DNA of 64,000 nucleotides from Comamonas sp. (GTDB taxonomy: Bacteria > Pseudomonadota > Gammaproteobacteria > Burkholderiales > Burkholderiaceae_C): contig JAQVCA010000010.1 of NCBI GenBank assembly GCA_028690035.1, positions 1 through 64,000 of the forward strand, given 5' to 3'. Below, one piece after another: positions 6,459 to 59,204 of the stretch. Below the pieces are notes generated by a model that worked only from the letters and a program-made list of their open reading frames with translations, did not search any database and had not been told where the DNA came from. Positions within the stretch are counted from its first letter, which is position 1; every line of letters starts with the position of its first letter. The position numbers and the translations under genes were made by a program.

Positions 6459-6534
6459 AGCTGCCAGCGCTTGCTGGGTGTGGTTTTTAAGATGTTTTAA
6501 TCCTAAAAACCAATCCTATAGAGCGCTGGCAGCT
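6459..6534. repeat. Long-form intergenic hairpin element
   Basis: The outer arms are a perfect 13-bp inverted repeat: AGCTGCCAGCGCT at 6459-6471 and AGCGCTGGCAGCT at 6522-6534. Nested inside is a second perfect 8-bp stem, TGGTTTTT (6481-6488) with AAAAACCA (6505-6512). It lies between the thiolase and the acyl-CoA dehydrogenase gene, about 40 bp after the thiolase stop. It is the clearest example of a family with further copies at 18548, 28294, 34100, 37239, 43455 and 52887. Confidence 0.9.
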
Positions 6535-6573
6535 ATCAAATTAAAGAAATTCAAAAATTCCAAGGAGACACCC

Positions 6574-7704
6574 ATGCTGCTGACCCAAGACCAGACCATG
6601 GTGCGCGACGCTGTGCGCGACTTTGTGACCGAGCAAATCACCCCCCACGCCGCGCGCTGGGACAAAGAGCACCACTTCCCGCGCGACGTACACCAGGGCT
6701 TGGCGGCCTTGGGGGCCTACGGCATTTGCGTCCCCGAGGAGTACGGCGGTGCCGGGCTGGACTACGTCACGCTGGCGCTGGTGCTGGAAGAAATTGCCGC
6801 TGGCGATGGTGGCACCAGCACGGCCATCAGCGTGACCAACTGCCCGGTCAATGCCATTCTCATGCGCTATGGCAGCGAAGCGCAAAAGCAGCAGTGGCTG
6901 GCGCCGCTGGCGCGCGGCGAGATGCTGGGGGCGTTTTGTCTGACCGAGCCGCATGTGGGCTCCGACGCTTCGGCGCTGCGCACCACGGCGGTGAAAGAGG
7001 GCAACGAATATGTGCTCAACGGGGTGAAGCAGTTCATCACCAGCGGCAAGAACGGCCAGGTGGCCATCGTCATCGCCGTGACCGACAAGGCGGCGGGCAA
7101 AAAAGGCATGAGCGCCTTCATCGTGCCTACCAGCGCCCCAGGTTATGTGGTGGCGCGCCTGGAAGACAAGCTGGGCCAGCACAGCAGCGACACCGCACAA
7201 ATCAATTTTGACAACTGCCGCATTCCCGCCGAGAACCTGATTGGCCAGGAAGGCGAGGGCTACAAAATTGCCCTGGGCGGTCTGGAGGGCGGGCGCATTG
7301 GCATTGCTGCGCAAAGCGTGGGCATGGCGCGCGCGGCCTTTGAGGCGGCGCTGCAGTACAGCAAAGAGCGCGAGAGCTTTGGCAAGCCCATCTTCAACCA
7401 CCAGGCCGTGGGCTTTCGCCTGGCCGAATGCGCCACGCAGATCGAGGCGGCGCGCCAGCTGATTTGGCACGCGGCCAGCCTGCGCGATGCTGGTCAGCCC
7501 TGCCTGAAAGAGGCCGCCATGGCCAAGCTGTTTGCCAGCGAGATGGCCGAGCGCGTGTGCAGCGCCGCCATCCAAACGCTGGGCGGCTACGGCGTGGTGA
7601 ACGACTTCCCGGTCGAGCGCATTTACCGCGACGTGCGCGTGTGCCAAATCTACGAAGGCACCAGCGACGTACAAAAAATCCTCATCCAGCGCGCGCTGGC
7701 CTGA
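6574..7704 (+). CDS. Acyl-CoA dehydrogenase (short-chain type)
   Basis: A 376-residue acyl-CoA dehydrogenase starting MLLTQDQTMVRDAVRDFV, with AAGGAG 6 bases before the ATG. Signatures are AFCLTEPHVGSDA for flavin/substrate binding and, near the C terminus, IYEGTSDVQKI, where Glu361 is the general-base position of short- and medium-chain enzymes. This distinguishes it from the upstream isovaleryl-CoA dehydrogenase. It probably acts on short-chain or methyl-branched acyl-CoA. A hairpin element separates it from the thiolase gene, so it may have its own promoter. Confidence 0.9.
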   Translation: MLLTQDQTMVRDAVRDFVTEQITPHAARWDKEHHFPRDVHQGLAALGAYGICVPEEYGGAGLDYVTLALVLEEIAAGDGGTSTAISVTNCPVNAILMRYGSEAQKQQWLAPLARGEMLGAFCLTEPHVGSDASALRTTAVKEGNEYVLNGVKQFITSGKNGQVAIVIAVTDKAAGKKGMSAFIVPTSAPGYVVARLEDKLGQHSSDTAQINFDNCRIPAENLIGQEGEGYKIALGGLEGGRIGIAAQSVGMARAAFEAALQYSKERESFGKPIFNHQAVGFRLAECATQIEAARQLIWHAASLRDAGQPCLKEAAMAKLFASEMAERVCSAAIQTLGGYGVVNDFPVERIYRDVRVCQIYEGTSDVQKILIQRALA

Positions 7705-7725
7705 GGTCTTGCTGGGTCACCTCGT

Positions 7726-7740
7726 GCCCTGTTACAGGGC
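7726..7740. promoter_or_regulatory. 15-bp palindrome ahead of the diguanylate cyclase gene
   Basis: GCCCTGTTACAGGGC is a perfect 7-bp inverted repeat with one central base. It is followed by TAAAAT (7747-7752), a good -10 hexamer, 36 bp before the GGDEF gene start. It could be an operator overlapping the promoter, or the stem of a weak terminator for the preceding gene, though there is no T run. No known regulator motif is recognised. Confidence 0.4.
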
Positions 7741-7787
7741 GGCGCCTAAAATGACAGGCTCATTTCTTGATGCATATGGCCTGATTC

Positions 7788-9140
7788 ATGGTTGGAAAAA
7801 CGCCGGCGGCGATTGCCCGCGAAACCCTCAAACTGCTCTCTGCACGGCAGTTGGCGCCCACGCCAGAAAATTACCAAGCCGTGTACCAGGAGGTGGCGGG
7901 GCTGGACGCGGACAAAGGGGCGGGTGCGCCAACGCTGCCTACCGAGCTGGCCGAGCAGATGGCGCGCGTCATCGAGCTGGCCCGCCCGGCTTTTGGTGGC
8001 GACGATGTGCGCCTGCGCGAGATGGCCGACCAGCTGCAGCAGTTCTTGCGCCAGCCTGCGCCCGCAGTGGATACCTTGCTGCTGCTGTTGCAGAACTTTG
8101 GCTATCGGCTGTCGTTTGTGGCGCAGGATCAGGCGCAGATCCGTGCCAGTTTGCTGCAGCTGCTGGGCTTGGTGCTGGAAAACCTGTCGGTCTTGTGCCT
8201 GGACGATCAATGGCTGCAGGGTCAGCTGGAGCGCTTGCAGCGCACCACCGCGCCACCCCTGAGCCTGGAGCAGTTGCAAGCTGCGCAAGTGAGTCTGAGC
8301 GAGGTGATCGGCCAGCAGGCCCAGGCCAAGGACCGCCTGGCGCAGGCGCAGCAGGATTTGCGTGCCCTGATGTCCACCTTCATCGGTCGCCTGAGCAGCA
8401 TTGGTGACCACAATGCGGCGTACCACGAGCAGCTGGAGGGGTGTGCCCAGCGCCTGAGTCAGGTGTCGCAGCTGCACGAGCTGGCCCCGCTGCTGAGCGA
8501 GGTCATGGCCGCCACGCGCAGCATGACCGAACACTGTGACCGCGCTCGCACGGAGCTGCAAATTTTGCGTGAGCGTAGTGAGTCTGGGTATGCTGAAATC
8601 GATCAACTGCGTCAGGCGTTGGAGCAGACCAGCGCCCTGGCACGCCAGGATGCACAGACGGGTGTCTTGAACCGCCGTGGTTTGGAAGAGGCTGTGGCAT
8701 TGGAGTTGACACGCACACGTCGCAGCGGCCAGCCGATGTGCGTGGCGCTGCTGGATCTGGATGACTTCAAGGCCATCAACGACCGCTTGGGCCACGATAC
8801 CGGCGACCGTGCGCTGGTGTATCTGGTGGATATCGCACGCCAGGTGCTGCGTACGCAGGACCATTTGGGCCGTTACGGCGGGGAAGAATTTGTCTTTTTG
8901 CTGCCTGGCACGACCCTGGAGCAGGGGGCCGAGATCATGAAGCGTCTGCAGCGCGCCTTGACCACCCAGTATTTTTTGCAGGGTAGCGATCGCATTCTGA
9001 TCACCTTTAGCGCAGGGGTGGCGCAGATCGGTGCCGATGAGGGGTATGCCCATGCCCTGGTGCGCGCCGATCAGGCGATGTACCGCGCCAAGCGTGCGGG
9101 CAAGAATCAGGTGGCCATGGCCCCTCCTGGCGCGCCCTGA
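7788..9140 (+). CDS. GGDEF-domain protein, probable diguanylate cyclase
   Basis: A 450-residue cytoplasmic protein that should make cyclic di-GMP from two GTP. The C-terminal GGDEF domain (about residues 285-445) begins DAQTGVLNRRGLEE and carries an intact active-site loop, RYGGEEF. An inhibitory I-site, RTQD, lies five residues upstream of GGEEF, so product feedback is expected. The N-terminal 280 residues are mostly helical with a Leu/Gln-rich, coiled-coil-like stretch and no membrane segment or recognised sensor domain. No EAL or HD-GYP domain is present. It lies downstream of the acyl-CoA dehydrogenase on the same strand with 83 bp between them and a likely own promoter. Confidence 0.9.
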   Translation: MVGKTPAAIARETLKLLSARQLAPTPENYQAVYQEVAGLDADKGAGAPTLPTELAEQMARVIELARPAFGGDDVRLREMADQLQQFLRQPAPAVDTLLLLLQNFGYRLSFVAQDQAQIRASLLQLLGLVLENLSVLCLDDQWLQGQLERLQRTTAPPLSLEQLQAAQVSLSEVIGQQAQAKDRLAQAQQDLRALMSTFIGRLSSIGDHNAAYHEQLEGCAQRLSQVSQLHELAPLLSEVMAATRSMTEHCDRARTELQILRERSESGYAEIDQLRQALEQTSALARQDAQTGVLNRRGLEEAVALELTRTRRSGQPMCVALLDLDDFKAINDRLGHDTGDRALVYLVDIARQVLRTQDHLGRYGGEEFVFLLPGTTLEQGAEIMKRLQRALTTQYFLQGSDRILITFSAGVAQIGADEGYAHALVRADQAMYRAKRAGKNQVAMAPPGAP

Positions 9141-9144
9141 ACTT

Positions 9145-9666
9145 TCAATCCCAGGTGGCTTCGGGGCGCAGTTGCTGGGCCAGGGTCTTGGGCCAGTGCA
9201 GATCCAGATCGGCCATGCGCTGCTTGATCAGGATGGGCGCCACTTCAAACAGATGCGCCAATTCGTCCAGGGAGTATGCCTGTGCGCTGCCTAGGCCAAA
9301 GCGCAGCACCTGCTCGGGGATGAGCAGACGCAGAGCGAAATCGTTGGCTTCGCTGTCGATGCGTTGTTCTACGTCCACGTGGTAATGGTCGGAGACGACA
9401 ATACGGTGCTGCATGCCGGGGCGCAGGTGGTGCAGTGCCAGATGCCCCAGCGCATGCGCCACGCCGTAACGCTGGCGCTCCAGCGGGTGGCGGCGATCGA
9501 GCAAGACGCGCGCCTTGCGCTGCAGCGAAATCTCCAGCTGCGCGCAGCCGTCGGGCAGTTCACCCAGTGCCACCACCAGGCGCATCGCCTTGGCGATGCG
9601 CGCCAGGTTGACCGGCACCGATTGATCCCAGTGCAGTTTGAGGATGCCCTCGGCCAGCAGGGTCAT
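9145..9666 (-). CDS. ImmA/IrrE-like protein with degenerate metallopeptidase motif
   Basis: A 173-residue protein resembling the ImmA/IrrE (DUF955) family: a helix with the zinc-ligand spacing (VAHALGHLALHHL, residues about 69-81) followed by EANDFALRLLIPEQVL, the typical EAN.FA..LL.P segment. The normal motif is HExxH, but the catalytic Glu is Ala here (HALGH), so peptidase activity is doubtful although both His ligands remain. No helix-turn-helix DNA-binding domain is fused to it. It lies downstream of the lptM-like gene on the minus strand and ends 4 bp from the end of the convergent GGDEF gene. Role unknown. Confidence 0.6.
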   Translation of the reverse strand: MTLLAEGILKLHWDQSVPVNLARIAKAMRLVVALGELPDGCAQLEISLQRKARVLLDRRHPLERQRYGVAHALGHLALHHLRPGMQHRIVVSDHYHVDVEQRIDSEANDFALRLLIPEQVLRFGLGSAQAYSLDELAHLFEVAPILIKQRMADLDLHWPKTLAQQLRPEATWD

Positions 9667-9702
9667 GGGTTTGGGGCTGTCAGGTGAGCGTCCACTTCCT
9701 TG

Positions 9703-9939
9703 TTATGGCTTGACAAAGTCGCGGTCGGCTGTAGGGGCTGTCGCCGCAGGCACGGCTGGAACGACAGGGGCTGCAGTGGTCAGCGGTGCCACCAGGGTGT
9801 CGCCCAGCGTGGCGCGCTCTGGGGTTGCGCTGCTGCTGGGCAGGTACAGGTCGCCGCGCTGGCCGCAGGCGCCCAGGGTCAGGCAGCCAGACAAGGTGGC
9901 CAGCTTCAGCGCGGTCAGGGGGGAGAAGGGCAGAGGCAT
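9703..9939 (-). CDS. lptM: Small LptM/YifL-like lipoprotein
   Basis: A 78-residue lipoprotein. The signal peptide ends in the lipobox LGAC with the acylated Cys at residue 25, followed by GQRGDLYLPS, the conserved CGQxGxLYLP start of LptM (YifL) proteins, which assist maturation of the LptD outer-membrane LPS translocon. The remainder is Pro/Ala/Thr-rich and probably unstructured. It is 15 bp downstream of the PBP1A gene and could be co-transcribed. In many relatives lysA follows; here an ImmA-like gene follows instead. Confidence 0.8.
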   Translation of the reverse strand: MPLPFSPLTALKLATLSGCLTLGACGQRGDLYLPSSSATPERATLGDTLVAPLTTAAPVVPAVPAATAPTADRDFVKP

Positions 9940-9954
9940 AGGGGCTCCAAGGGC

Positions 9955-12381
9955 TTAGTTGCGGAACAGGTCCAGGATGCTGCTGCGCTCTTGCTCATCG
10001 GGCGCTGCTGTGGGTTGCTCGGCAGAGCCTGCCGCGCTCCAATCCACTTCCATGCCCAGGCTGCGCACGCCGCTGCGGTTCAGGTTTTCCTGGTAGAACC
10101 ATTCGCCATCGGCGTTCACCAGCCCGCTGGGCACGCTGTACGACACCACCGGCACATCCTTGAGTGCGTGTTCCATGAACTGAATCCAGATCGGCAGGCT
10201 CAGCCCGCCGCCTGTCTCACGCGAGCCCAGGTTGCGCGGCGTGTCGTAGCCAATCCAGGTGATGGCCGTCAGCCCCGGTTGGAAGCCGGCAAACCAAGCA
10301 TCCACAGCATCGTTGGTGGTACCCGTCTTGCCGTATAGGTCAGGGCGCTTGAGGGTGGCCTGTGCGCGTGCGGCCGTGCCCGAGCGCGCCACAGTCTGCA
10401 GCATGCTGTTCATGATGAAGGCGTTGCGCTCGTCGATCACGCGCTCTTGTGCAGACAGCGGGGGTGGCTCGTACTGCGCCAGCACAGTGCCGCGCTGGTC
10501 GGTGATTTTGGTGATCAGCCAGGGGTTGATCCGGTAGCCAGTGTTGGCAAAGGTGGCAAAGCCAATCGCCATTTGCATGGGGGTGACCGAACCTGCGCCC
10601 AAAGCCATCGTCAGGTAAGGCGGGTGTTTGACCGCATCAAAACCAAAGCGGGTGACCCACTGCTGGGCAAAGGCGGGGGTGATGGTCTCCAGTATGCGCA
10701 CCGAGGGGATGTTGCGCGACTTGGCCAGGGCGACGCGCAGCGTCATCGGGCCTTCAAAGCGGCCATCGTAGTTTTTGGGTTGCCAGGGCTGACCACCGGT
10801 GACGCCAGCACCATAAGTCAAGGGTGCGTCGTTGATGATGGTGGAGGGCGTGATGCCTTTTTCGAGTGCAGCCGAGTAAATGAAGGGTTTGAAGGCAGAG
10901 CCTGGTTGGCGCCACGCCTGGGTGACATGGTTGAATTTGTTCTTGGCAAAGTCAAACCCACCCACCAAAGCGCGGATGGCGCCTGTTTGCGACTCGATCG
11001 CTACAAAAGCGCCTTCCACTTCGGGCAGTTGGGTGGCTGACCAGAGCTTGCCGGTGTGGATGATGCGAATCACCGCACCGGGCACGATCTTAATTTGTGG
11101 CGGTGCCTTGGCACTCAGACCCGACTCGACAGGCTTGAGACCTTCGCCCACGATGTCTAGGCGTTCACCATCGTGGCGCTGCACGACGAGTTTTTTCGGG
11201 CCGACTTCCAGTACCACAGCAGCAAGCACGTTGCCGTTATCAGGGTGCTGGGCCAAGGCATCGTCCACGGCGTCTTCCAATGCCTGGGCTTCGGTGGGCA
11301 GGGTGATAAAGCGCTCTGGCCCGCGGTAGCGCTGGCGTCGTTCGTAGGCCATGATACCTTCACGCAGGGCACGGTAGGCGGCCTTTTGTTCGTCTAGGTG
11401 CAAAGTGGTATAGACGTTTAGGCCGCGCGTGTAGGTGTCTTCACCGTACTGGTTGAACATCAGCTGGCGAGCCATCTCGGCGACAAAGTCGGCATGGGTA
11501 AGGTTCTCTGTCACCCGGGCGCGGCGTAGGCGCAAGGGCTCTTCGCGCGCCTGCTGTGCCTGCGCGGCGGTGATAAAACCGTTCTCTTCCATGCGGTCGA
11601 TGATGTACAGCTGCCGGGTACGCGCACGCTTGGGGTTGCTGATGGGGTTGTACGCCGAAGGGGCCTTGGGCAGACCGGCCAGCATGGCCGCTTCGGCCAC
11701 GGTCAGCTCTTTGAGCTGCTTGCCAAAGTACACCTCGGCAGCGGCAGCAAAACCATAGGCACGGTGTCCCAAGAAGATCTGGTTCATATAGACCTCCAGA
11801 ATCTTTTCCTTGGTCAGCAGATGTTCCAGTTTGAAGGTCAGCAACACCTCGTAAATCTTGCGCGTGTAGGTTTTCTCTGACGACAGGTACACATTGCGTG
11901 CCACTTGCATGGTGATGGTGGATGCTCCCTGGCTCTTGACCTTGCCCAGGTTGGCCAGTGCGGCACGCAGCATGCCTTTGTAATCGACACCGTTGTGTTC
12001 AAAAAAACGCGTGTCTTCGATGGCCAGCACGGCATCGACCATGACTTTGGGGATTTCTTGGATGGGTGTCAGGGTGCGGCGTTCTTCTCCAAATTCGCCA
12101 ATCAAGACCCCTTCAGAGGAATAGACACGCAGCGGTAATTTGGGACGGTAGTCCACGAGAGCCGAGATGTCGGGGAGGTTGGGATAGGCCATAGCCAGCG
12201 CAATTGCCACCAGCAGCGCTGCAGACATGGCCCCCGCCACGGCCAGGCCGAACAGCCACAGCACCGCACGCACAGGCCAGGGCCAGCGTTGGGGGGAAGC
12301 TGGTTTTTGGGGTGGTGTTGCTGGAGGCGTTTCGGAGGGAAGGGCAGCGTGACCGCTGGCTGGGGGCGTGGAGGTAGGCAT
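9955..12381 (-). CDS. mrcA: Penicillin-binding protein 1A (bifunctional peptidoglycan glycosyltransferase/transpeptidase)
   Basis: About 808 residues: one N-terminal transmembrane helix (VLWLFGLAVAGAMSAALLVAIALAM), a glycosyltransferase domain with EDTRFFEHNGVD (catalytic Glu) and GASTITMQVARN, an OB-like linker, and a transpeptidase domain with the Ser in PGSAFKPFIY (SxxK), KSRN (SxN) and GKTGTTND (KTG). It polymerises and cross-links peptidoglycan. The ATG at 12381 is preferred because a TATAAT hexamer at 12407-12412 on this strand overlaps another possible ATG at 12408, which would then lie inside the promoter; neither start has a strong ribosome site. It is divergent from pilM, as in many proteobacteria. 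Confidence 0.92.
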   Translation of the reverse strand: MPTSTPPASGHAALPSETPPATPPQKPASPQRWPWPVRAVLWLFGLAVAGAMSAALLVAIALAMAYPNLPDISALVDYRPKLPLRVYSSEGVLIGEFGEERRTLTPIQEIPKVMVDAVLAIEDTRFFEHNGVDYKGMLRAALANLGKVKSQGASTITMQVARNVYLSSEKTYTRKIYEVLLTFKLEHLLTKEKILEVYMNQIFLGHRAYGFAAAAEVYFGKQLKELTVAEAAMLAGLPKAPSAYNPISNPKRARTRQLYIIDRMEENGFITAAQAQQAREEPLRLRRARVTENLTHADFVAEMARQLMFNQYGEDTYTRGLNVYTTLHLDEQKAAYRALREGIMAYERRQRYRGPERFITLPTEAQALEDAVDDALAQHPDNGNVLAAVVLEVGPKKLVVQRHDGERLDIVGEGLKPVESGLSAKAPPQIKIVPGAVIRIIHTGKLWSATQLPEVEGAFVAIESQTGAIRALVGGFDFAKNKFNHVTQAWRQPGSAFKPFIYSAALEKGITPSTIINDAPLTYGAGVTGGQPWQPKNYDGRFEGPMTLRVALAKSRNIPSVRILETITPAFAQQWVTRFGFDAVKHPPYLTMALGAGSVTPMQMAIGFATFANTGYRINPWLITKITDQRGTVLAQYEPPPLSAQERVIDERNAFIMNSMLQTVARSGTAARAQATLKRPDLYGKTGTTNDAVDAWFAGFQPGLTAITWIGYDTPRNLGSRETGGGLSLPIWIQFMEHALKDVPVVSYSVPSGLVNADGEWFYQENLNRSGVRSLGMEVDWSAAGSAEQPTAAPDEQERSSILDLFRN

Positions 12382-12406
12382 ACGACAGTTGGAGTCAGGG
12401 AGCTGC

Positions 12407-12412
12407 ATTATA
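12407..12412 (-). promoter_or_regulatory. Candidate -10 element of mrcA
   Basis: On the minus strand TATAAT, a perfect consensus -10, lies 26 bp before the preferred start of mrcA. No convincing -35 is visible at 16-18 bp, so this is a partial promoter call. Confidence 0.45.
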
Positions 12413-12642
12413 GAAATCGCGGGTTGTGGCCACTGCCACCTGTGGCAACACCAAGCCTTAGCAGACTTGCCTTATGGATGCGACAAGTTGTCACAAAAAC
12501 CCTGCGTTCGTACGCTTTTGGCAACACTATCGGGCAAATGATCGGCTGCTTTGTCAAAGCGCAGCATTTCTTGCTGCTAGCATCGTTCGCCGTAGCGTAA
12601 ATTTGCCAACCTCTGAGTCCTTCCCACGCGAGAGGAGATGTC

Positions 12643-13731: not shown

Positions 13732-14330
13732 TTCTGATTAATCTCTTGCCGCACCGTGAGGCAGCGCGCAAACGACGCAAGGAAGTGTTCCAGATCGCGA
13801 TGTTTGCTGCCTTGCTGGTCGGACTGCTGATCTCGGCAGGTATTTATGCCTGGTTTCAATGGCTCATTGAAACCCAGCAGGCGCGCAATGCCTTCTTGCA
13901 GTCGGAAATCACCGTGCTGAATAGGCAGATCAAGGACGTCGAGGGACTGGAAGGTGAGATTGCTGCCCTGCGCGCGCGTCAAACGGCGGTGGAAGACCTG
14001 CAGTCCGATCGCAATATGCCGGTACATCTGCTCAGCGATTTGACGCAGCTGCTGCCTGAGGGCGTGTATCTGACATCGCTCAAGCAAAACGGTCTGTCGG
14101 TTGAGCTCAAAGGTGCGGCCCAGTCCAATGAGCGGGTGTCCGAGGTTCTGCGCAATCTTTCCAGTAGCTCGCCCTGGATCACCCAGCCCGTGCTCAAGGA
14201 AATCGTCTCTGGATCGGTGGAAGTGGCACCCAAGGATTTGCGCAAGGTGGTGAACTTTTCCATGACGTTTACGCTGGTGCGCTCTGCTCAGGTGGCGCAG
14301 AAGCAGAACACAGAACAGCGGAAGCCCTAA
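13728..14330 (+). CDS. pilN: Type IV pilus assembly protein PilN
   Basis: A 200-residue bitopic membrane protein. The conserved cytoplasmic INLLPHRE motif that docks into PilM is at residues 4-11, followed by a transmembrane helix (FAALLVGLLISAGIYAWF), a coiled coil and a periplasmic ferredoxin-like domain. The start is GTG at 13728, overlapping the pilM stop (GTGA), with GGAGG eight bases upstream. This start puts INLLPHRE right at the N terminus, as in the family. The overlap implies translational coupling with pilM. Confidence 0.92.
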   Translation: MILINLLPHREAARKRRKEVFQIAMFAALLVGLLISAGIYAWFQWLIETQQARNAFLQSEITVLNRQIKDVEGLEGEIAALRARQTAVEDLQSDRNMPVHLLSDLTQLLPEGVYLTSLKQNGLSVELKGAAQSNERVSEVLRNLSSSSPWITQPVLKEIVSGSVEVAPKDLRKVVNFSMTFTLVRSAQVAQKQNTEQRKP

Positions 14331-14333
14331 GCC

Positions 14334-17874: not shown

Positions 17875-17897
17875 GTTGGAAAATTCCTAAACTGCCA

Positions 17898-18540: not shown

Positions 18541-18547
18541 AATACAT

Positions 18548-18623
18548 AGCTGTTAGTGCTTGCCTGTATTGGGTTTTAAGGCTATTTAACCTTGAAATCC
18601 TTGCTGGATAAGCGCAAGCAGCT
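18548..18623. repeat. Long-form intergenic hairpin element
   Basis: The left arm starts AGCTGTTAGTGCTTG (18548) and the right arm is AAGCGCAAGCAGCT (18610-18623). The inner stem pairs GGGTTTTAAGG (18571-18581) with CCTTGAAATCC (18590-18600) over 11 positions, using two G-U type pairs and no mismatch. It lies between aroK and aroB. Confidence 0.85.
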
Positions 18624-18646
18624 ATACATATAGAAAGACCCCTCCC

Positions 18647-28279: not shown

Positions 28280-28293
28280 GAGATTAAAAAAAG

Positions 28294-28371
28294 GAGCTGC
28301 TAGCGCTTGTCTATAAAGGTTTTCAGTATAAAAACCATCTAAAAACCTTATAAATAAGGCGCGAGCAGCTC
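28294..28371. repeat. Long-form intergenic hairpin element
   Basis: Outer arms GAGCTGCT (28294-28301) and AGCAGCTC (28364-28371) pair perfectly and extend imperfectly inward through GCGCTT/AAGGCGC. The inner stem is AAGGTTTT (28316-28323) with AAAACCTT (28342-28349), a perfect 8 bp. It sits between two convergent genes and could terminate both. Confidence 0.85.
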
Positions 28372-28377
28372 TAATTT

Positions 28378-28953: not shown

Positions 28954-28984
28954 CAAAAAAAGAGCGCCCGCAGGGGGCGCTCTT
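28954..28984 (-). terminator. Intrinsic terminator after ccsB
   Basis: On the minus strand AAGAGCGCCC, a 5-base loop and GGGCGCTCTT form a perfect 10-bp stem followed by a run of seven or more T. It lies 26 bp after the ccsB stop and ends the cytochrome c maturation unit. Confidence 0.9.
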
Positions 28985-34081: not shown

Positions 34082-34099
34082 GCAGCATCTTTAAAAGAA

Positions 34100-34186
34100 G
34101 AGCGCTTCGCGCTTGCCTGGCTTGGATTTCAAAGACTTTATGCCTTGAAATCCTTTCAGGGTAAGCGCGAGGCGCTCATTTTTTAT
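34100..34186. repeat. Long-form intergenic hairpin element with changed but compensated arms
   Basis: The arms GAGCGCTTCGCGCTTGCC (34100-34117) and GGTAAGCGCGAGGCGCTC (34160-34177) pair over 18 positions with only two G-U type pairs, although their sequence differs from the common AGCTG(C/T)yAGCGC arm. The inner stem is GGATTTCAA (34124-34132) with TTGAAATCC (34145-34153). A T run follows (34179-34184), so it can act as a terminator for engB; it lies between convergent genes. Confidence 0.88.
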
Positions 34187-37214: not shown

Positions 37215-37238
37215 TCCCTAGCAAGCTTCTTAAAACAT

Positions 37239-37325
37239 AGCTGCCAGCGCTGGCCTAGAGCGGGTTTCAATATTAAAAATATCTGAAATCCAAGCTGGGT
37301 GAGCGCTGGCAGCTTCTTTTTTTTT
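37239..37325 (+). repeat. Long-form intergenic hairpin element acting as metK terminator
   Basis: Perfect 13-bp outer stem AGCTGCCAGCGCT (37239-37251) with AGCGCTGGCAGCT (37302-37314). The inner stem is GGGTTTCA (37262-37269) with TGAAATCC (37284-37291), one G-U type pair, and inside that ATATT/AATAT. It is followed at once by a run of ten T (37316-37325), which makes it an intrinsic terminator for metK. nadM starts only 16 bp after the T run. Confidence 0.9.
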
Positions 37326-40090: not shown

Positions 40091-40119
40091 TCGCACGCAT
40101 CCTCTTTTTTTATAGCTGC

Positions 40120-40142
40120 TAGCGCTTGCTGAATAAGCGCTA
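40120..40142. repeat. Short-form hairpin element between groES and groEL
   Basis: TAGCGCTT (40120-40127), loop GCTGAAT, AAGCGCTA (40135-40142): the two arms of the long family joined directly without the inner stem. AGCTGC precedes it. It lies inside the groES-groEL operon, so it probably affects mRNA processing or partial termination rather than ending the operon. Confidence 0.8.
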
Positions 40143-40167
40143 GTCCATGATTTTAAACAGATTTTAG

Positions 40168-41889: not shown

Positions 41890-41919
41890 AACAGGCCGCT
41901 TGATGCGGCCTGTTTTTTT
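41890..41919 (+). terminator. Intrinsic terminator after groESL
   Basis: AACAGGCCGC (41890-41899), loop TTGAT, GCGGCCTGTT (41905-41914) is a perfect 10-bp stem running into a T run. Confidence 0.92.
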
Positions 41920-43454: not shown

Positions 43455-43534
43455 ATAGCTGCTCGCGCTTGATATAAAAGGGTTTCTGGTGTTTAAGTGC
43501 CCGAAACCCTTATTTAATAAGCGGTAGGCGCTAT
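43455..43534. repeat. Long-form intergenic hairpin element
   Basis: Left arm ATAGCTGCTCGCGCTTG (from 43455), right arm AATAAGCGGTAGGCGCTAT (43516-43534); the outer stem is imperfect. The inner stem AAGGGTTTC (43478-43486) with GAAACCCTT (43503-43511) is perfect over 9 bp. It lies between the convergent transporter and methyltransferase genes. Confidence 0.8.
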
Positions 43535-46369: not shown

Positions 46370-46379
46370 AAATCTGCCT

Positions 46380-46429
46380 TTTGGCCTTGCTGGATCAGCG
46401 GTTCAAGCTATGGTTTTTCAGGCTTTAGC
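46380..46429. repeat. Degenerate relative of the intergenic hairpin family
   Basis: CCTTGCTGGATCAGCGGTTC followed by TCAGGCTTTAGCC shares stretches with the element at 1682-1732 (TCAGGCTTTAGCC) and with CTTGCTGGATAAGCG of the canonical copies, but it does not form a good stem. It occupies the gap between flgN and dgt. Confidence 0.35.
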
Positions 46430-51271: not shown

Positions 51272-51305
51272 TACCGCGTTGATGCAAGAGAAGGAGTAGC
51301 CCGCA

Positions 51306-52046: not shown

Positions 52047-52093
52047 GCGCCTGAGTTGCACAACCGGCCAGAACAAGAGAAGGAAGCCACACT

Positions 52094-52876: not shown

Positions 52877-52886
52877 TAAATTTAAT

Positions 52887-52962
52887 AGCTGTTTTCGCTT
52901 GCTTATATTGGTTTTCAGTATATTTTTGTACTGAAACCCTTTAAAAATAAGCGCAAGCAGCT
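52887..52962. repeat. Long-form hairpin element within the flg array (flgG-flgH)
   Basis: Left arm AGCTGTTTTCGCTTGC (from 52887), right arm AAGCGCAAGCAGCT (52949-52962). The inner stem pairs GGTTTTCAGTA (52910-52920) with TACTGAAACC (52929-52938) over 10 bp with one bulge. It is followed by CTCTCTTTTTT, so partial termination within the flagellar operon is possible. Confidence 0.85.
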
Positions 52963-52990
52963 CTCTTTTTTAGCGTTGAAGGTCATAGCC

Positions 52991-53752: not shown

Positions 53753-53773
53753 GAATCTCCAGAATCGGGCAGT

Positions 53774-54934
53774 ATGAAGATACTGTCCATGCCCCCCTCG
53801 CTGCGCGCTGGTCTGTGCGCCAGCGCACGCCGCCTGACCGTGCTGGTCGCACTGGCCGCTGGCCTTGCCTGGCAGCCCGCACAGGCCTTGCGCATCAAGG
53901 AAGTTGCTGCCGTGCAGGGCGTGCGCAGCAACCAGTTGTCCGGCTATGGCCTGGTGGTCGGGCTGGATGGCACCGGCGACCAGACCACGCAGATGCCCTA
54001 CACCACCCAGTCGGTGCAGAACTATCTGCAGCAGATGGGCATCACCTTGCCCGCCAACATCAACGCCCGCAACATCCAGCTCAAGAACGTGGCTGCCGTG
54101 GTCGTCACCGCCGAGCTGCCGCCGTTTGCCCAGCCGGGCCAGCAGATCGATGTGGTGGTCTCCTCCATGGGCAATGCCAAATCGCTCAAGGGCGGCACCC
54201 TGATTACCACCCCGCTGCGCGGCGCCGATGGCGAGATTTACGCCCTGGCCCAGGGCAACATGGTGGTGGGTGGCGCGGGGGCCTCGCAAGGTGGCTCCAA
54301 GGTGCAGATCAACCACCTGAGCGCCGGGCGCATTCCGATGGGCGCGCAGGTCGAGCGTGCCGTGCCCACCCCGCTCAACGACAGCGACACCATCCGTCTG
54401 GGGCTGAACGCCTTCGATTTTCAGACCGCCACCAAGGTGGTGCAGGCCATCAATGGCCGCCACGGTATGGGCACCGCTGCCGCGCTGGATGGGCGCACCG
54501 TAGAGGTGCGCGCCCCCATGGACCCCAGCGCGCGCGTGGGCTTTCTGGCCGACATCGAAGAGCTGCAACTGCCCGGCAGCAAGCCCGCTGCCAAGGTGGT
54601 GATCAACCCCCGCACCGGCTCGATCGTCATGAACCAGGCCGTCACCCTGGGGCCCTGCGCCATTGCCCACGGCAACCTGGCCATCACCATCGATTCCACG
54701 CCGGTCATCAGTCAGCCCAACCCGCTGTCGCAGGGCCAGACCGTGGTGCGCGAGAAGAGCAACATCCAGGTCACCCAGGAGCCGGGCAACGTCATCAATG
54801 TGCCGGCATCGCCCCAGTTGGCCGATGTGGTGCGCTCGCTCAACGCCCTGGGCGCCACACCGCAGGACCTGTTGGCGATCTTGCAAGCCATCAAAGCGGC
54901 AGGTGCTTTGAATGCAGAACTGGAGGTGCTATGA
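53774..54934 (+). CDS. flgI: Flagellar P-ring protein FlgI
   Basis: A 386-residue periplasmic P-ring protein. Signal peptide LTVLVALAAGLAWQPAQA, then LRIKEVAAVQGVRSNQLSGYGLVVGLDGTGDQT, AVVVTAELPPFAQPGQQIDVVVSS and AILQAIKAAGALNAELEVL. The stop overlaps the flgJ start (ATGA). FlgA, encoded divergently, is its assembly chaperone. Confidence 0.96.
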   Translation: MKILSMPPSLRAGLCASARRLTVLVALAAGLAWQPAQALRIKEVAAVQGVRSNQLSGYGLVVGLDGTGDQTTQMPYTTQSVQNYLQQMGITLPANINARNIQLKNVAAVVVTAELPPFAQPGQQIDVVVSSMGNAKSLKGGTLITTPLRGADGEIYALAQGNMVVGGAGASQGGSKVQINHLSAGRIPMGAQVERAVPTPLNDSDTIRLGLNAFDFQTATKVVQAINGRHGMGTAAALDGRTVEVRAPMDPSARVGFLADIEELQLPGSKPAAKVVINPRTGSIVMNQAVTLGPCAIAHGNLAITIDSTPVISQPNPLSQGQTVVREKSNIQVTQEPGNVINVPASPQLADVVRSLNALGATPQDLLAILQAIKAAGALNAELEVL

Positions 54935-55914
54935 GCGCGCAAATTCTGGGCTACAACGCCAGCAATGCACTGGCCACCGATCTCAACTCGCTCAACGGCC
55001 TGAAGAACGAGGCCAACAACAAAAGCCCGCAGGCCGTGCGCGAGGCAGCCAAGCAGCTTGAGTCGCTGTTCATGCGCGAGATGATCAAAAGCATGCGCGA
55101 GGCCACCATGAAAAGCGGCCTCATGGATGAAGAAGGTGGCGGCGATCTGGCGCGCGATATGTACGACCAGCAGCTGTCGGTCACCATGGCTGGGTTGCCC
55201 GGGGGGCTGACGGCCTCGATCACGGCGCAGATTGCGCGCTCCATGGGCATCGACGAAAAAGAAGCCCTGGCAGGGCTGCAACAGCCCGTGGGCGGGGTGG
55301 AGGGCGGTCGGTTTTCTATGCCTTCCACCGTCAGTCTGGCGGGTAAGAGCGGGCGTTTTGAACAATGGGCGGGTAAGTCGGGCCTGTTGGGCACAGCAGC
55401 CAATGCGCAGGTGCTCGACAGCTATGGTGCAGCCCCCAAAGGGCGAGACAACTTTGTGCTTGCGCACAGCGCTGCCGCACAGCGCGTGGCGCAGGAAAGC
55501 GGCATTCCCGCGCACTACATGCTGGGCCAGGCCGGGCACGAAACCGGCTGGGGCAAGAGCGAGATCCGTGGCGCCGGTGGCACCAACTCCTTCAACCTGT
55601 TTGGCATCAAGGCCGGGCCGGGCTGGAAGGGCAAGGTGGCCGAGATCACCACCACCGAATACATCAATGGCCAGGCACAGAAGGTGAAGGCCAAGTTCCG
55701 CGCTTACGACTCGTACGAGGAGTCGTTCCGCGACTACGCGCGCCTGATCAGCCAGAACCCGCGCTACGCCCAGGCCATGCAAAGCACGGCCAGCGCCCAC
55801 GACTACGCCCGAGCCTTGCAAAAGGCGGGCTATGCCACCGACCCGCAGTACGCCAACAAGCTGTCGCGCGCCATCGAAAGCGCACGTGCAGTGCAGCGCG
55901 CCGACCAGGCCTGA
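54931..55914 (+). CDS. flgJ: Flagellar rod assembly protein/muramidase FlgJ
   Basis: A 327-residue dual-domain FlgJ. The N-terminal rod-cap domain has AVREAAKQLESLFMREMIKSMREATMKSGL; the C-terminal glucosaminidase-type domain (about 160-320) has IPAHYMLGQAGHETGWGKSEIRG with the catalytic Glu. It locally opens peptidoglycan for rod passage. Translation is coupled to flgI by a 4-bp overlap. Confidence 0.96.
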   Translation: MSAQILGYNASNALATDLNSLNGLKNEANNKSPQAVREAAKQLESLFMREMIKSMREATMKSGLMDEEGGGDLARDMYDQQLSVTMAGLPGGLTASITAQIARSMGIDEKEALAGLQQPVGGVEGGRFSMPSTVSLAGKSGRFEQWAGKSGLLGTAANAQVLDSYGAAPKGRDNFVLAHSAAAQRVAQESGIPAHYMLGQAGHETGWGKSEIRGAGGTNSFNLFGIKAGPGWKGKVAEITTTEYINGQAQKVKAKFRAYDSYEESFRDYARLISQNPRYAQAMQSTASAHDYARALQKAGYATDPQYANKLSRAIESARAVQRADQA

Positions 55915-55967
55915 GCGCAGGCCGTCGCCCCGACCCCATTCCCCTATTTACAAAGAGATAGCACACC

Positions 55968-57908
55968 ATGAGTCTCATGAACGTCGGCGTCTCCGCCCTG
56001 ACCGCCAATCAGCAGGCCCTGACCACCACCGGGCACAACATTGCCAACGTCAACACCCCCGGTTACTCGCGCCAGACCGTCTATACCAAGGCGCTGGCGG
56101 GGCAATCTGGCTCGTGCGGAACGGGCTTCATCGGCAAGGGTGTGCAGGTGGCCACCGTGATGCGCAACTACAGCGCTTTGCTCAACCGCCAGTCCAACGC
56201 CGCCACCGCCACCCACGCAGCCGACAGCACGCGCCTGCAGGGCCTGATGCAGATGCAGGACGTCTTCAGCGGTGGCGATGGCAGCCTGGGCACCGCCATC
56301 AACAACGTCATGAACGCGTTTGTCGATGTGCAGGCCGCGCCGTCGGACGCCACGGGGCGCAACGTGGTGCTCACGCGCATGAGCGAGCTGGCGGCGCGCT
56401 TTCGCGCGGCCTCGGGCATGCTCGACGAGCAAAAGTATTCCACCGAGCAGCAGCTGGGCAACGATGTGCTGCTGGTCAACGACCTGGCCACCCAGGTGGC
56501 CCAGCTGAACGTGCAGATTGGCCGTGCCCTGGCCTCGGGCCACCAGCCCAATGACCTGCTCGATGCGCGCGACCAGGTCGTGCGTGACATCAATAAATAC
56601 GTGCAAACCAGCCAGGTGGCCACCGAGGATGGCAGCATCAGCCTGTTTGTGGGTGGTACCCAGGCGCTGGTGCTGGGTGCCAGCGTGGGCCAGCTGAGTG
56701 TGGCCGAGCCCCAAGAATACCCCGGCAGCCAGAAGCTGGCGCTGTACTTTAGCCAGCCCAATGGCCAGCGCGTCGAACTGACCGCCGGCATGCTGGGCGG
56801 CGGTGAGGTCGCGGGGCTGCTGCAGTTCAACAACGAAGATCTGGTCGAAGGGCGCAACCTGCTCGGGCGTCTGGTGCTTGCCGTAGGCTATGAACTGAAC
56901 GAGCAAAACAAGCGTGGCCTAGATCTGAATGGCAACCCGGGTAACGAGCTGTTCAGCTTGAGCACCCAGACCCAGGGCTACAGCAGTATTGCGGGCTACG
57001 ACCCGAACGAGGACGGCAGCTTTGCCACGGCAACCCTGGTGAATGCGCGCGATCTGAAACCCTCGGACTACAAAGTCGTCTTCAACGCCGACCAGGAGCC
57101 GAGCCTGATTCGCCTGTCCGACGGCAAGACGTTCGATCTGACGGGGGTAGATTTGGAAGAGGGCTACCAAGCCGATGGGTTGCTGTTTACCGTGCCTGCG
57201 GACATCAGCGACGCGGCCCAGGAGGGGCAAAGCATCCTGTTCCAGCCGTTCAACCGCGCGGCCAGCGAAGTGCAGGCCAAGATGCACAACCCCGACGAGC
57301 TGGCCGTGGCCAGCGCCTTGACGGCCAACATCAACAAAAGTAACGCTGGCACGCTGCAGCTGAGCTTTTTAGGTATCAGCGATCTGGCGGGAGCTATCCC
57401 CGATGAAGGCGATCCGCTGACCTTGACCTTCGATGGTGCGGGTGGCTACAGCTACCCTGGTGGGAGCGGCACCTATACCCCGGGCCAGCCCATCACCATC
57501 GACGGCTGGAGCATCACCCTCACGGGCACGCCAGCGGATGGTGACACCGTGGAAGTGGCCAACGCCAAGGATTTTGGTCAGGCCTACCGCCTCAATGCAG
57601 GCAACGCGGGCGCTTTCCTGGACATGCGCGACCAGACGCTGTTTGACGAGGGTACCTCACTGACCGATGGCTTCTCAGCCGCGATGGCCGTGGTGGGCAC
57701 GCGCACGCAAAGCGCCCAGCTGGCCGAAAAGCTCTCGTCCACCGTGGCGAACAACCTGGAGCTGGACCGCACCGCCATTTCTGGCGTCAACCTGGACGAA
57801 GAGGCCGCGCGCCTGCTGCAGTACCAGCAGGCCTACCAGGCCTCGTCCAAAGTGATTCAAATTGCACAAAGCCTGTTTGACAGCGTGTTGAACGCTGTGG
57901 GCCGCTGA
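55968..57908 (+). CDS. flgK: Flagellar hook-associated protein FlgK (HAP1)
   Basis: A 646-residue hook-filament junction protein. N-terminal MNVGVSALTANQQALTTTGHNIANVNTPGYSRQT and C-terminal SGVNLDEEAARLLQYQQAYQASSKVIQIAQSLFDSVLNAVGR are canonical. The central domain (about 330-540) is variable. No sigma-28 promoter is seen in the 53-bp gap after flgJ, so it may be read from upstream. Confidence 0.96.
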   Translation: MSLMNVGVSALTANQQALTTTGHNIANVNTPGYSRQTVYTKALAGQSGSCGTGFIGKGVQVATVMRNYSALLNRQSNAATATHAADSTRLQGLMQMQDVFSGGDGSLGTAINNVMNAFVDVQAAPSDATGRNVVLTRMSELAARFRAASGMLDEQKYSTEQQLGNDVLLVNDLATQVAQLNVQIGRALASGHQPNDLLDARDQVVRDINKYVQTSQVATEDGSISLFVGGTQALVLGASVGQLSVAEPQEYPGSQKLALYFSQPNGQRVELTAGMLGGGEVAGLLQFNNEDLVEGRNLLGRLVLAVGYELNEQNKRGLDLNGNPGNELFSLSTQTQGYSSIAGYDPNEDGSFATATLVNARDLKPSDYKVVFNADQEPSLIRLSDGKTFDLTGVDLEEGYQADGLLFTVPADISDAAQEGQSILFQPFNRAASEVQAKMHNPDELAVASALTANINKSNAGTLQLSFLGISDLAGAIPDEGDPLTLTFDGAGGYSYPGGSGTYTPGQPITIDGWSITLTGTPADGDTVEVANAKDFGQAYRLNAGNAGAFLDMRDQTLFDEGTSLTDGFSAAMAVVGTRTQSAQLAEKLSSTVANNLELDRTAISGVNLDEEAARLLQYQQAYQASSKVIQIAQSLFDSVLNAVGR

Positions 57909-57936
57909 TGTGTACGTGACGTAAGGAGTCTTTGCC

Positions 57937-59178
57937 ATGACGATCTCCCGCTTGGGTACGGCCAATATGTACGACCGCACCATCCACAACATCAACAAAC
58001 AGCAAAACGAGCTGGCCAGCCAGATGGAGCACACCTCGGCCGGGATGCGCGTGCTGCGCGCCAGCGACGACCCCGTGGCCGCCGCCCAGGCCGAGCGTGC
58101 GCGCAACCGCCTGGAGCGCATTGCCAGCGATCAGCGCGGTCTGGATGCGCAAAAAGCCACCATCGAGTACGGCGAATCCACCCTGGGTGAAATCAACGAT
58201 GCGCTGCAGGCGTTTCGCTCGCTGATGGTGCAGGCCGGCAACGGCGTGTACAACCAAGTGCAGCGCGACACCCTGGTCGAGCAGCTGTCCAGCCTGCGCG
58301 AGCAAATCTCTAAATACGCCAACCGCGTGGACAGCAATGGTCTGCCGCTGTTTCGGGGGCTGGACACGGCCACGGGCCTGCCCTTTCCCAACGACCAGGA
58401 GGGCATCCAGTCGGGCCAGCCCAACAACGGCGAGTTTTTCATTGCCAACGCGCTCAACGGCGTGCAGGCGTTTTTCACCGGCAAAACGGGCAATGGCGTG
58501 CTGGAGATCGAGCCCTTCTTGCGCGACCCTGTCGATGACCCGGAGGGTGATCCCATCCCCAACCAGGGCAAGGCCCATGCCGATGTGGGCGTGATCAAAG
58601 ACCCGGCGGCGGCTGCCGAAGTGACCGATCCCCTCACGATCACCTTCCAGGACAACGCGGGCGTGCTGGAATATTCGGTCGATGACGGTGGCACTTGGCA
58701 GACCTACCAGGCGGGCGAGGCCATTGCGGTGGCCGGTATGGAGGTGACCATCAAGGGCGAGCCCAAAGCCGGTGACGGCTTCACCATCCGGCCCAGCCAG
58801 ACCATTTCCACCTTTGAGGCCCTGGACCGCGCCATTGCCGTCGTGCGCGACAACGGCAACTTCGATGGCAGCACCGCCTACGGCACCTTGGCGCATGGCA
58901 TCACCCAGTCGCTCACCGAGCTGGATACAGCACTGAACCGCGTCTCCACCGTACGCGGGCTGGCGGGCGATTTGCTCAACCAGGCCCAGCGCATGGGCAA
59001 CACCTTGCTGGTGCGCGAAGAGCAGGTGGAAACGCAGCGCGTGGCGGCCGAGCAGTACGACGCCGAAGGCATGGTGCGCGCCATCGCGCAGATGCAGACG
59101 CAGCAGACCTCAGTGTCGGCGGCCTTGCAGTCGTACGCATCGATCCAGAAACTGTCCTTGTTTAATTACATCAATTAA
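57937..59178 (+). CDS. flgL: Flagellar hook-associated protein FlgL (HAP3)
   Basis: A 413-residue junction protein. MTISRLGTANMYDRTIHNINKQQNELASQMEHTSAGMRVLRASDDPVAAA and the C-terminal DAEGMVRAIAQMQTQQTSVSAALQSYASIQKLSLFNYIN belong to the flagellin-like FlgL family. AAGGAG lies upstream. Last flagellar structural gene of the array; a short hairpin element follows. Confidence 0.96.
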   Translation: MTISRLGTANMYDRTIHNINKQQNELASQMEHTSAGMRVLRASDDPVAAAQAERARNRLERIASDQRGLDAQKATIEYGESTLGEINDALQAFRSLMVQAGNGVYNQVQRDTLVEQLSSLREQISKYANRVDSNGLPLFRGLDTATGLPFPNDQEGIQSGQPNNGEFFIANALNGVQAFFTGKTGNGVLEIEPFLRDPVDDPEGDPIPNQGKAHADVGVIKDPAAAAEVTDPLTITFQDNAGVLEYSVDDGGTWQTYQAGEAIAVAGMEVTIKGEPKAGDGFTIRPSQTISTFEALDRAIAVVRDNGNFDGSTAYGTLAHGITQSLTELDTALNRVSTVRGLAGDLLNQAQRMGNTLLVREEQVETQRVAAEQYDAEGMVRAIAQMQTQQTSVSAALQSYASIQKLSLFNYIN

Positions 59179-59185
59179 GCCATTT

Positions 59186-59204
59186 GCGCTTGCTGGGTAA
59201 GCGT
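59186..59204. repeat. Short-form hairpin element after flgL
   Basis: GCGCTT (59186-59191), loop GCTGGGT, AAGCGT (59199-59204), followed by TAGCAGCTAT, the outer end of the usual right arm. It resembles the groES-groEL short form. It lies between flgL and the HDOD gene. Confidence 0.7.

What the first reader, a model, noticed from the sequence alone, without database searches (positions are those of the whole stretch)
6459..59204. Family of intergenic hairpins in a long (double-stem) and a short form
At least nine copies lie in the window, all between genes: long forms at 6459, 18548, 28294, 34100, 37239, 43455 and 52887, short forms at 40120 and 59186, plus two degenerate relatives at 1682 and 46380. 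The long form has outer arms of the AGCTGCyAGCGCTTG type and a separate nested stem (GGTTTCA/TGAAACC type); the short form joins the outer arms directly through a 7-base GCTGnnT loop. None lies inside a coding region. This looks like a dispersed, non-coding repeat family that has been recruited as terminators or mRNA-stabilising structures, and the long form may derive from insertion of a second stem into the short one.
Basis: seen in the sequence. Interest (0 to 1): 0.75.

Follow-up and report, generated by a model that had tools for sequence, protein, structure and literature searches.

The report
Two-storey hairpin repeats ending genes
About a hundred copies of an 80-letter, two-level hairpin sit just behind genes in this bacterium and in a number of its relatives; they look like an old scattered repeat family that now probably works as a two-way stop sign for gene reading, and a few copies have become part of proteins.

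Summary
The seven long forms are one family: 80 nt, two nested stems, folding z -5.7 to -9.6. A model built from them finds 96 places in the genome (capped listing) and the family in 16 of 141 sampled genera. Own copies: 41 between convergent genes, 50 co-directional, 0 divergent, 4 in-frame inside genes, 1 at a stretch edge. Six of seven window copies sit in the orthologous gap of a sister species, again 80 nt. In 17 orthologous pairs the stems change by compensation (44 double changes, 11.9 expected). On the sense strand of co-directional copies G-U mismatches exceed A-C (118:73, p 0.0014), while convergent copies show little (86:79), so selection acts at least partly on the transcript. Best reading: an old dispersed repeat family used as bidirectional intrinsic terminators; termination itself is inferred. 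The short form is an asymmetric element whose core is already published as an unexplained motif (Tong 2017). Derivation of the long from the short form is not supported.

The parts
6457..6536 (.). long form, 80 nt, between co-directional genes (5228-6418+ and the next + gene); A-run before it, no T-run after it
   Evidence: orthologous 80-nt copy in sister G065:C1:11604
18546..18625 (.). long form, 80 nt, in the aroK-aroB gap, 5 nt after the aroK stop; no T-run after it
   Evidence: 80-nt matches in the aroK-aroB gap also in G065, G005 and G012
28293..28372 (.). long form, 80 nt, between convergent genes; A-run before and T-run after
   Evidence: orthologue G065:C1:36053
34099..34178 (.). long form, 80 nt, between convergent genes; T-run after
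   Evidence: orthologue G065:C1:41830 with different arm sequence
37237..37316 (.). long form, 80 nt, between co-directional genes; strong T-run after
   Evidence: orthologue G065:C1:44981
43455..43534 (.). long form, 80 nt, between convergent genes; in the sister only the inner stem survives
   Evidence: sister remnant L266:11486-11523, model positions 23-60, 26.9 bits
52885..52964 (.). long form, 80 nt, between co-directional genes; T-run after
   Evidence: orthologue G065:C1:60832
40112..40150 (+). short form in the groES-groEL gap, polarity +
   Evidence: neighbours match Cpn10 and Cpn60; conserved in sister
59176..59214 (-). short form between co-directional genes, polarity -
   Evidence: weakly conserved in sister
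1682..1725 (+). short-form relative between two - strand genes, polarity +
   Evidence: (2 mismatches); conserved in sister
46372..46420 (-). degenerate short-form relative between two - strand genes
   Evidence: (4 mismatches, weak); partly conserved in sister

Best explanation
The long form is an old, dispersed palindromic repeat of about 80 bp (somewhat over 90 bp with its flanking A-run and T-run) that spread in the past and is now kept at gene 3' ends as a bidirectional intrinsic transcription terminator. Inferred mechanism: RNA polymerase leaving a gene transcribes the left outer arm, then the inner hairpin (GGnTTTCAG ... CTGAAAnCC) forms and brings the outer arms (AGCTGCTnGCGCT ... AGCGCnAGCAGCT) together; the outer stem closes as the U-run is made and the complex comes apart. 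Because the DNA is a palindrome with an A-run on the left and a T-run on the right, it works from either side, which suits convergent genes. Shown here: anatomy, copy number (lower bound), 3'-end placement, orthologous retention, covariation, near-invariant arm geometry, sense-strand G-U tolerance. Inferred: that it terminates transcription, how it spread, and what holds the spacing fixed. A few copies inside genes are read through in one frame as protein linkers.
For: Placement: own copies 41 convergent, 50 co-directional, 0 divergent of 91 intergenic, against 9 divergent of 30 window gaps over 90 nt (Fisher p 1e-6); four genome sets together 72, 91 and 0 of 163. A run of at least 4 T within 15 nt after the element in 56 of 91 co-directional copies and of at least 4 A before it in 62 of 91; opposite-base controls 9 and 20. 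Covariation on 83 of the 96 own copies: 206 cells changed on both sides against 118.9 +- 11 in shuffles, score 0.226 against 0.142, at most 0.098 with slid partners. In 17 own-sister orthologue pairs: 44 double changes against 11.9 expected if independent, 27 of them still Watson-Crick. RNA level: in 82 co-directional 80-nt copies, leaving out two pairs at index 16-17, sense-strand G-U exceeds A-C (38:23 outer, 80:50 inner; orientation-flip p 0.0014 one-sided); 71 convergent copies show little (26:24, 60:55); unpaired positions show no T/A or G/C skew (p 0.98, 0.67). Length: 17 of 17 orthologues are 80 nt, while 6 of 24 flanking segments kept their length. Four of six in-gene copies lack a T4 run after the element on the sense strand.
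Against: No transcript data. The A-run before the element is as common as the T-run after it even between co-directional genes (62 and 56 of 91), and element orientation is indifferent to the genes (25:25), so the symmetry may belong to the element rather than to termination. 35 of 91 co-directional copies have no T4 run after them, among them window 6457 and 18546. Ordinary compact terminators exist in the same window, e.g. 41890-41914 after groEL. The fixed arm spacing is more than a terminator needs. In the own genome alone the G-U excess is modest (79:53, p 0.03 one-sided), and copies related by descent are not independent. The fixed length is partly ascertained: copies were found with an 80-position model and the sister copies fetched were its best-scoring ones.
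Confidence: 0.62

Rival explanations
1. A non-functional mobile palindrome (MITE or REPIN-like) that merely survives where it does least harm, behind genes.
For: Dispersed in 96 places and in 16 of 141 genera. Copies inside genes. The sister has one copy the window lacks (68474) and one decayed remnant (51486). The six G083 copies fetched are all 79 nt with a shorter apical loop, suggesting descent from one founder in that lineage. Pneumococcal repeats are read this way in PMC3049150 (passages).
Against: Few similar copies (6 of 4278 pairs above 80 percent, maximum 87.5). Orthologous sites keep the element with compensatory changes. No decayed long copies in the window. Sense-strand G-U bias. 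Presence of a Y1-type transposase does not track the element: 15 of 20 rich or near-kin genomes and 16 of 20 poor genomes have a match.
Confidence: 0.15
2. An mRNA 3'-end structure for processing or stability (RNase III-type substrate, exonuclease barrier) rather than a terminator.
For: Two stems with a weakly paired zone of equal length on both arms between them and near-rigid spacing; RNA-level signature. Resemblance to RNase III substrates is recalled, not tested.
Against: A-run/T-run flanks and the excess between convergent genes (41 of 91 against 4 of 30 window gaps) fit termination better.
Confidence: 0.12
3. A DNA binding site for a dimeric or tetrameric protein (roadblock or chromosome-structuring protein).
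For: Primary sequence is conserved in both arms and spacing is nearly fixed: the inner TTT block starts 28 nt from both ends in 78 of 96 own copies and 18 of 20 copies of four other genera by a relaxed pattern.
Against: G-U exceeds A-C on the sense strand mainly where there is one sense strand; half-site words such as AGCGCTTG or GGTTTCAG are not enriched outside the elements in the window, though AGCTGCT is.
Confidence: 0.08

Closest known systems
Spaced motifs GCTTAT(N)5AAGCG (Acidovorax ebreus) and ATAGCT(N)22CAAAAG (Polaromonas naphthalenivorans), Tong, Schliekelman and Mrazek 2017, PMC5217627 (passages seen)
   Same: They match the core of the SHORT form here (reverse complement CGCTT-N5-ATAAGC; own copy C7:38615 fits ATAGCT-N22-CAAAAG), mainly intergenic, often convergent, left unexplained in the passages seen.
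   Different: Spacers of 5 and 22 nt cannot describe the 80-nt long form; no structure, covariation or function in the passages seen.
SPRITE of Streptococcus pneumoniae, Croucher 2011, PMC3049150 (passages seen)
   Same: Dispersed, AT-rich terminator-like repeat with AAAA/TTTT ends, close to gene 3' ends, enriched between convergent genes, proposed to be co-opted as terminators.
   Different: One 18-bp stem followed by a long T-rich tract, 30 copies, mainly pneumococcus and S. mitis. Here two nested stems, near-fixed length, at least 96 copies, 16 genera, orthologous retention with covariation.
BRE of Bordetella and other Betaproteobacteria, Hot 2011, PMC3110155 (passages and section 14 read)
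   Same: About 90 bp full and 40-60 bp partial copies, mostly intergenic, reported also from Comamonadaceae.
   Different: GC 69 percent in Bordetella (here mean 42.5 percent), some loci tandem (here nearest copies 1.9 kb apart). Only 4 BRE in P. naphthalenivorans, where Tong reports 125 short-form motifs. The BRE sequence itself was not available.
Rickettsia palindromic elements (MITE review PMC10969869, passages seen)
   Same: Palindromic repeats read in-frame inside unrelated genes with a shared peptide.
   Different: About 150 bp and often genic; here 80 bp and 4 of 96 genic.
REP/REPIN elements with RAYT transposases (PMC2817692 and PMC3116915 seen in the listing only; the rest recalled)
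   Same: Extragenic palindromes near gene 3' ends; the short form lies beside a REP-type transposase gene or fragment on own contigs C18 and C7.
   Different: The long form is one nested hairpin, and Y1 transposase presence does not track it.

Membership tests
Intrinsic (Rho-independent) terminator | stable RNA hairpin | tested here: met
   -31.5 to -51 kcal/mol, z -5.7 to -9.6 for 7 of 7 window copies; covariation
Intrinsic (Rho-independent) terminator | U-run directly after the stem | tested here: inconclusive
   T4 or longer within 15 nt in 56 of 91 co-directional copies; absent at window 6457 and 18546
Intrinsic (Rho-independent) terminator | placed after genes, not between divergent genes | tested here: met
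   0 divergent of 163 intergenic copies in four genome sets
Intrinsic (Rho-independent) terminator | RNA 3' ends at the site | not testable with these tools
   needs Term-seq or a reporter
MITE | terminal inverted repeats | tested here: met
   whole element is an inverted repeat with A-run/T-run ends
MITE | target-site duplication or clean empty site | tested here: inconclusive
   window 60460 against sister 68474 and the UvrA linker show no clean empty site
MITE | parent transposase with matching ends | not tested
   only the presence of Y1 transposases was examined
REP/REPIN | associated RAYT transposase (long form) | tested here: not met
   Y1 match in 15 of 20 rich or near-kin and 16 of 20 poor genomes; G005 (85 percent complete), G012 and G010 have none at E <= 1e-5
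SPRITE | single 18-bp stem with long T-rich tract | tested here: not met
   two nested stems (16 and 13 pairs as drawn), short T-run
BRE | same nucleotide sequence | not testable with these tools
   sequence only in the paper's supplement; no Bordetella genome was searched by name
BRE | GC-rich, some loci tandem | tested here: not met
   mean GC 42.5 percent (29-53), nearest spacing 1914 nt
Paired DNA uptake sequences | single half-sites enriched throughout the genome | tested here: inconclusive
   window only, elements masked: AGCGCTTG 7 against 6.2, GGTTTCAG 1 against 1.7, but AGCTGCT 36 against 16.2
Any Rfam family | match at the gathering score | tested here: not met
   0 matches in the window; in 12 loci at E <= 0.1 five weak matches, four of them miRNA-precursor hairpin models over the elements, all far below gathering

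The most novel reading that the evidence does not exclude
A two-storey hairpin of near-invariant arm geometry (28 nt from each end to the inner TTT block in copies of five genera; the apical loop is where length varies in G083) is read by a dedicated trans-acting factor, not just by RNA polymerase. The family combines three lives: dispersed repeat, bidirectional terminator, and an in-frame linker of about 27 residues in proteins (HrpA, RNase E, UvrA, an E2 acyltransferase).
Probability: 0.25. Interest if true: 0.75.

Novelty: new variant of a known kind. Interest (0 to 1): 0.52.

Why it matters
If right, a family of about 100 copies per genome supplies gene ends in this genus and occurs in at least 15 further genera of its family. 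A terminator scan limited to loops of 3-8 nt saw at most fragments of the four long copies in the 20 kb scanned. It gives many matched orthologous sites on which to watch an RNA hairpin evolve by compensation while its spacing stays fixed, and a natural test of whether a repeat can pass from mobile DNA to terminator to protein linker.

Tried and rejected
Paired DNA uptake sequences: most half-site words are not enriched outside the elements in the masked window; AGCTGCT is (36 against 16.2), so this is made unlikely, not excluded.

RAYT/REPIN origin of the long form: Y1 transposase presence does not separate rich from poor genomes, and the roughly 250-residue Y1 genes have a short-form core (up to 4 mismatches) within the fetched flanks in only 2 of 20 loci.

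Recent transposition burst: only 6 of 4278 pairs of own copies exceed 80 percent identity.

Long form made by inserting the inner stem into the short form: no stand-alone inner stem by a strict, insensitive motif, and no long/short exchange at the sites compared.

Mobile replicons: no match of one element in plasmids or of another in phages; blastn is weak at this divergence.

BRE: argued to differ on GC, tandem habit and copy number; not settled by sequence.

Target-site duplication: the candidate empty sites (window 60460, UvrA linker) are not clean. In UvrA the copy-bearing linker is only 11-14 residues longer than in relatives without it, less than the element's 27, so replacement, insertion with deletion, or gradual build-up cannot be told apart.

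A paper on stem-loop families (PMC2267715, passages) lists Bordetella but the terms Comamonas, Ralstonia and Burkholderia do not occur in it; no use.

Limits: genome searches score a capped number of candidates (150, 114 or 27 per genome), so copy numbers are lower bounds. The model was trained on the seven window copies. Gene calls come from a home-made codon-usage caller, good for stop codons, approximate for starts. Copies dropped before counts: 3 of 96 own copies not 80 nt (for the G-U test); the six 79-nt G083 copies and two 79-nt G050 copies in the G-U test; 13 of 96 own copies in alignment A3 (three not 80 nt, four in genes, the six lowest-scoring). The window copy decayed in the sister (43455) is not among the 17 orthologous pairs. 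In some searches two 79-nt copies (L297, L301) had been taken as 80 nt; one search showed this and repeats the counts correctly (the p value went from 0.0008 to 0.0014). One search failed and was repeated; one search failed and was redone.
Full report
CHECK OF THE OBSERVATION. A covariance model from them (R1: 80 positions, 27 pairs), run without filters over the window, gives exactly these seven at 75-85 bits, all 80 nt, then a clean drop to 20.5 and 17.1 bits, which are the two short forms. The seven fold with z -5.7 to -9.6; the short forms fold weakly and the two 'degenerate' copies no better than shuffles. All four match the short-form core with 1, 2, 2 and 4 mismatches; at 4 mismatches that list also holds chance-looking hits. 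At 40120 and 1682 the short form is clearly conserved in a sister species; at 59186 and 46380 only partly.

HOW MANY AND WHERE. In the own genome (G000, 2.9 Mb, 22 contigs) R1 finds 96 distinct places at E <= 1e-5; only 150 of 1358 first-look candidates were scored, so this is a lower bound. In 388 kb around aroB from 80 other genomes the best score was 16.7 bits. Of the 96, 93 are exactly 80 nt; among these mean pairwise identity is 61.6 percent and 6 of 4278 pairs exceed 80 percent, so there is no sign of a recent burst. Context: 41 convergent, 50 co-directional, 0 divergent, 4 inside a called gene, 1 at a stretch edge; of 30 window gaps over 90 nt, 9 are divergent and 4 convergent. Copies from the sister G065 (31), from G005/G012/G047/G050 (24) and from four other genera (20) give the same picture; all 171 together: 91 co-directional, 72 convergent, 0 divergent, 6 in genes, 2 at edges.

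ANATOMY. From the outside in: an A-run (left) and T-run (right); an outer stem of 16 pairs, AGCTGCTnGCGCT and its mirror; six weakly paired positions per arm; an inner stem of 13 pairs around GGnTTTCAG/CTGAAAnCC with AA and TT beside it; a loop often with TTTT or AAAA at its centre. The A-run before the element is as frequent as the T-run after it even in co-directional gaps (62 and 56 of 91; opposite-base controls 9 and 20), and element orientation is indifferent to gene direction (25:25). By a relaxed pattern the inner TTT block begins 28 nt from both ends in 78 of 96 own copies and in 18 of 20 copies from four other genera; the six 79-nt copies fetched from G083 also keep 28 nt on both arms, so their loop is one base shorter. 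Two of three copies fetched from G050 are 79 nt as well.

EVOLUTION. The sister G065 (AroK 89 percent identical) is largely collinear with the window. Over 80 kb of it, without filters, R1 finds ten full copies, all 80 nt, and one remnant. Six of seven window copies have an 80-nt counterpart in the same gap; the seventh (43455) keeps only the inner stem there; the sister has one copy (68474) where the window gap is only 20 nt. Of 30 aroK loci searched, four (own, G065, G005, G012) carry an 80-nt match in the aroK-aroB gap. Of the 22 best sister copies fetched, 11 have both flanks matching the flanks of an own copy. In 17 orthologous pairs identity averages 66.7 percent (random own pairs 61.6) and falls to 37 percent in the spacer; of 364 Watson-Crick stem pairs, 276 are unchanged, 44 changed on one side (16 to G-U), 44 on both, 27 of the latter still Watson-Crick, against 11.9 double changes expected if independent; with slid partners doubles were 10-19 against 8-14 expected. 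All 17 are 80 nt, whereas the distance from stop codon to element is unchanged in 6 of 24 segments (Fisher p 7e-7); this contrast is inflated by the use of an 80-position model and of its best hits. On 83 aligned own copies four of five covariation measures exceed all 500 shuffles, the fifth (pairs with a double change, 19) is reached by 10 of 500, and every slid register scores lower; related sequences can exceed shuffles without structure, as the tool warns. The spacer pairs slightly more than shuffles (55.8 against 49.4 percent).

RNA OR DNA. If the transcript's fold is selected, G-U mismatches should be better tolerated than A-C mismatches on the sense strand, and mainly where there is a single sense strand. 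In 82 co-directional 80-nt copies, leaving out index 16-17, G-U against A-C is 38:23 in the outer and 80:50 in the inner stem (excess 45; one-sided p 0.0014 when orientations are flipped at random); in 71 convergent copies it is 26:24 and 60:55; unpaired positions of the co-directional copies show no T/A or G/C skew that would betray a mutational cause (p 0.98, 0.67). Each of the four genome sets leans the same way (99:72, 15:8, 23:13, 23:16, all pairs), the own genome alone giving p 0.03 (all). Related copies are not independent, so these p values are optimistic.

COPIES INSIDE GENES. Four own copies lie in open frames with normal coding scores on both sides and low scores inside, all read in the same frame of the element. 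By family search the hosts are HrpA, the C-terminal part of RNase E, UvrA and a 2-oxoacid dehydrogenase E2 acyltransferase. R1 finds the UvrA copy at 80 nt in G005 (45.5 bits), G065 (45.4), G047 (34.9) and G012 (20.5), and nothing at E <= 1 in ten other genus members, whose linker is different and 11-14 residues shorter. The E2 copy is recognised in G065 (29.6 bits), weakly in G012 (21.6) and not significantly in G047 (12.6). The sister has a second copy in the UvrA-type gene. In the six in-gene copies examined, sense-strand G-U against A-C is 2:16 and four of six lack a T4 run after the element. This suits copies that must not terminate, but six copies, two of them orthologous and all under codon constraint, cannot prove it.

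SPREAD. Long form: 16 of 25 genus genomes and 0 of 16 genomes from other families; 18 of 170 genomes and 16 of 141 genera in the family at E <= 1e-6. Short-form core with up to 2 mismatches: 106 of 299 family genomes have a match, and by my count of the listing 25 genomes in 13 genera have 20 or more, where the reversed-pattern control finds 0 to 1. Of the 18 long-positive genomes, 17 have at least two short cores.

SHORT FORM. It has polarity (ATAGCTGCT left, TAGAGGCC right of the core); 70 copies examined lie 43 co-directional, 9 convergent, 4 divergent, 6 inside a called gene, 8 at an edge, with no preferred orientation (24:19). One subtype flanks a REP-type transposase gene (374 codons; NF047646 at 41.9 bits, below its cut-off of 80) on own contig C18 and a fragment of it on C7; 4 of 40 genomes match its N-terminal fragment. 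The core matches motifs published without explanation (PMC5217627, passages).

KNOWN KINDS. It works like SPRITE, the pneumococcal terminator-like repeat (PMC3049150, passages), but is not a member: two nested stems instead of one. It differs from BRE (PMC3110155) in GC and tandem habit, though the sequences could not be compared. Rfam has nothing at gathering score in the window. That the long form is not in print rests on searches of the open library only, in which I found no description of it; subscription papers are not covered.

VERDICT. An old dispersed repeat family, now kept under RNA-structure selection at gene ends, most likely as bidirectional intrinsic terminators (0.62). The unexplained part is the near-rigid spacing between the two stems.

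Noticed in passing
own contig C7 (L153:1-20000) and C18 (L132): A cluster of short-form copies (216, 503, 1588, 1866, 2646, 2962 and others) in larger repeated segments, with a broken REP-type transposase fragment on C7 and an open 374-codon one plus a fragment on C18.
   Followed up: partly
window 41890-41914 and 28960-28984: Ordinary compact terminator-like hairpins with long T-runs (after groEL, and between - strand genes) coexist with the long elements.
   Followed up: no
window 60459-60480: 20-nt convergent gap where the sister carries a full long copy; no clean empty site.
   Followed up: partly
window 13847-13879: A hairpin TGCCTGGTTTCAATG/CATTGAAACCCAGCA resembling the inner stem but without outer arms; z -2.0, possibly chance.
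   Followed up: no
L264:151-6096 (sister G065): A roughly 2000-codon UvrA-type frame carries two in-frame long copies.
   Followed up: partly
G083 (genus g32): 18 Y1-type transposase matches, more than in any other of the 40 genomes examined, and 79-nt elements in the six copies fetched.
   Followed up: no
L290:2975-3013 (G012): A 39-nt match to the long-form model at 41 bits, that is a strong short-type palindrome without the inner part, 1.4 kb from a long copy.
   Followed up: no
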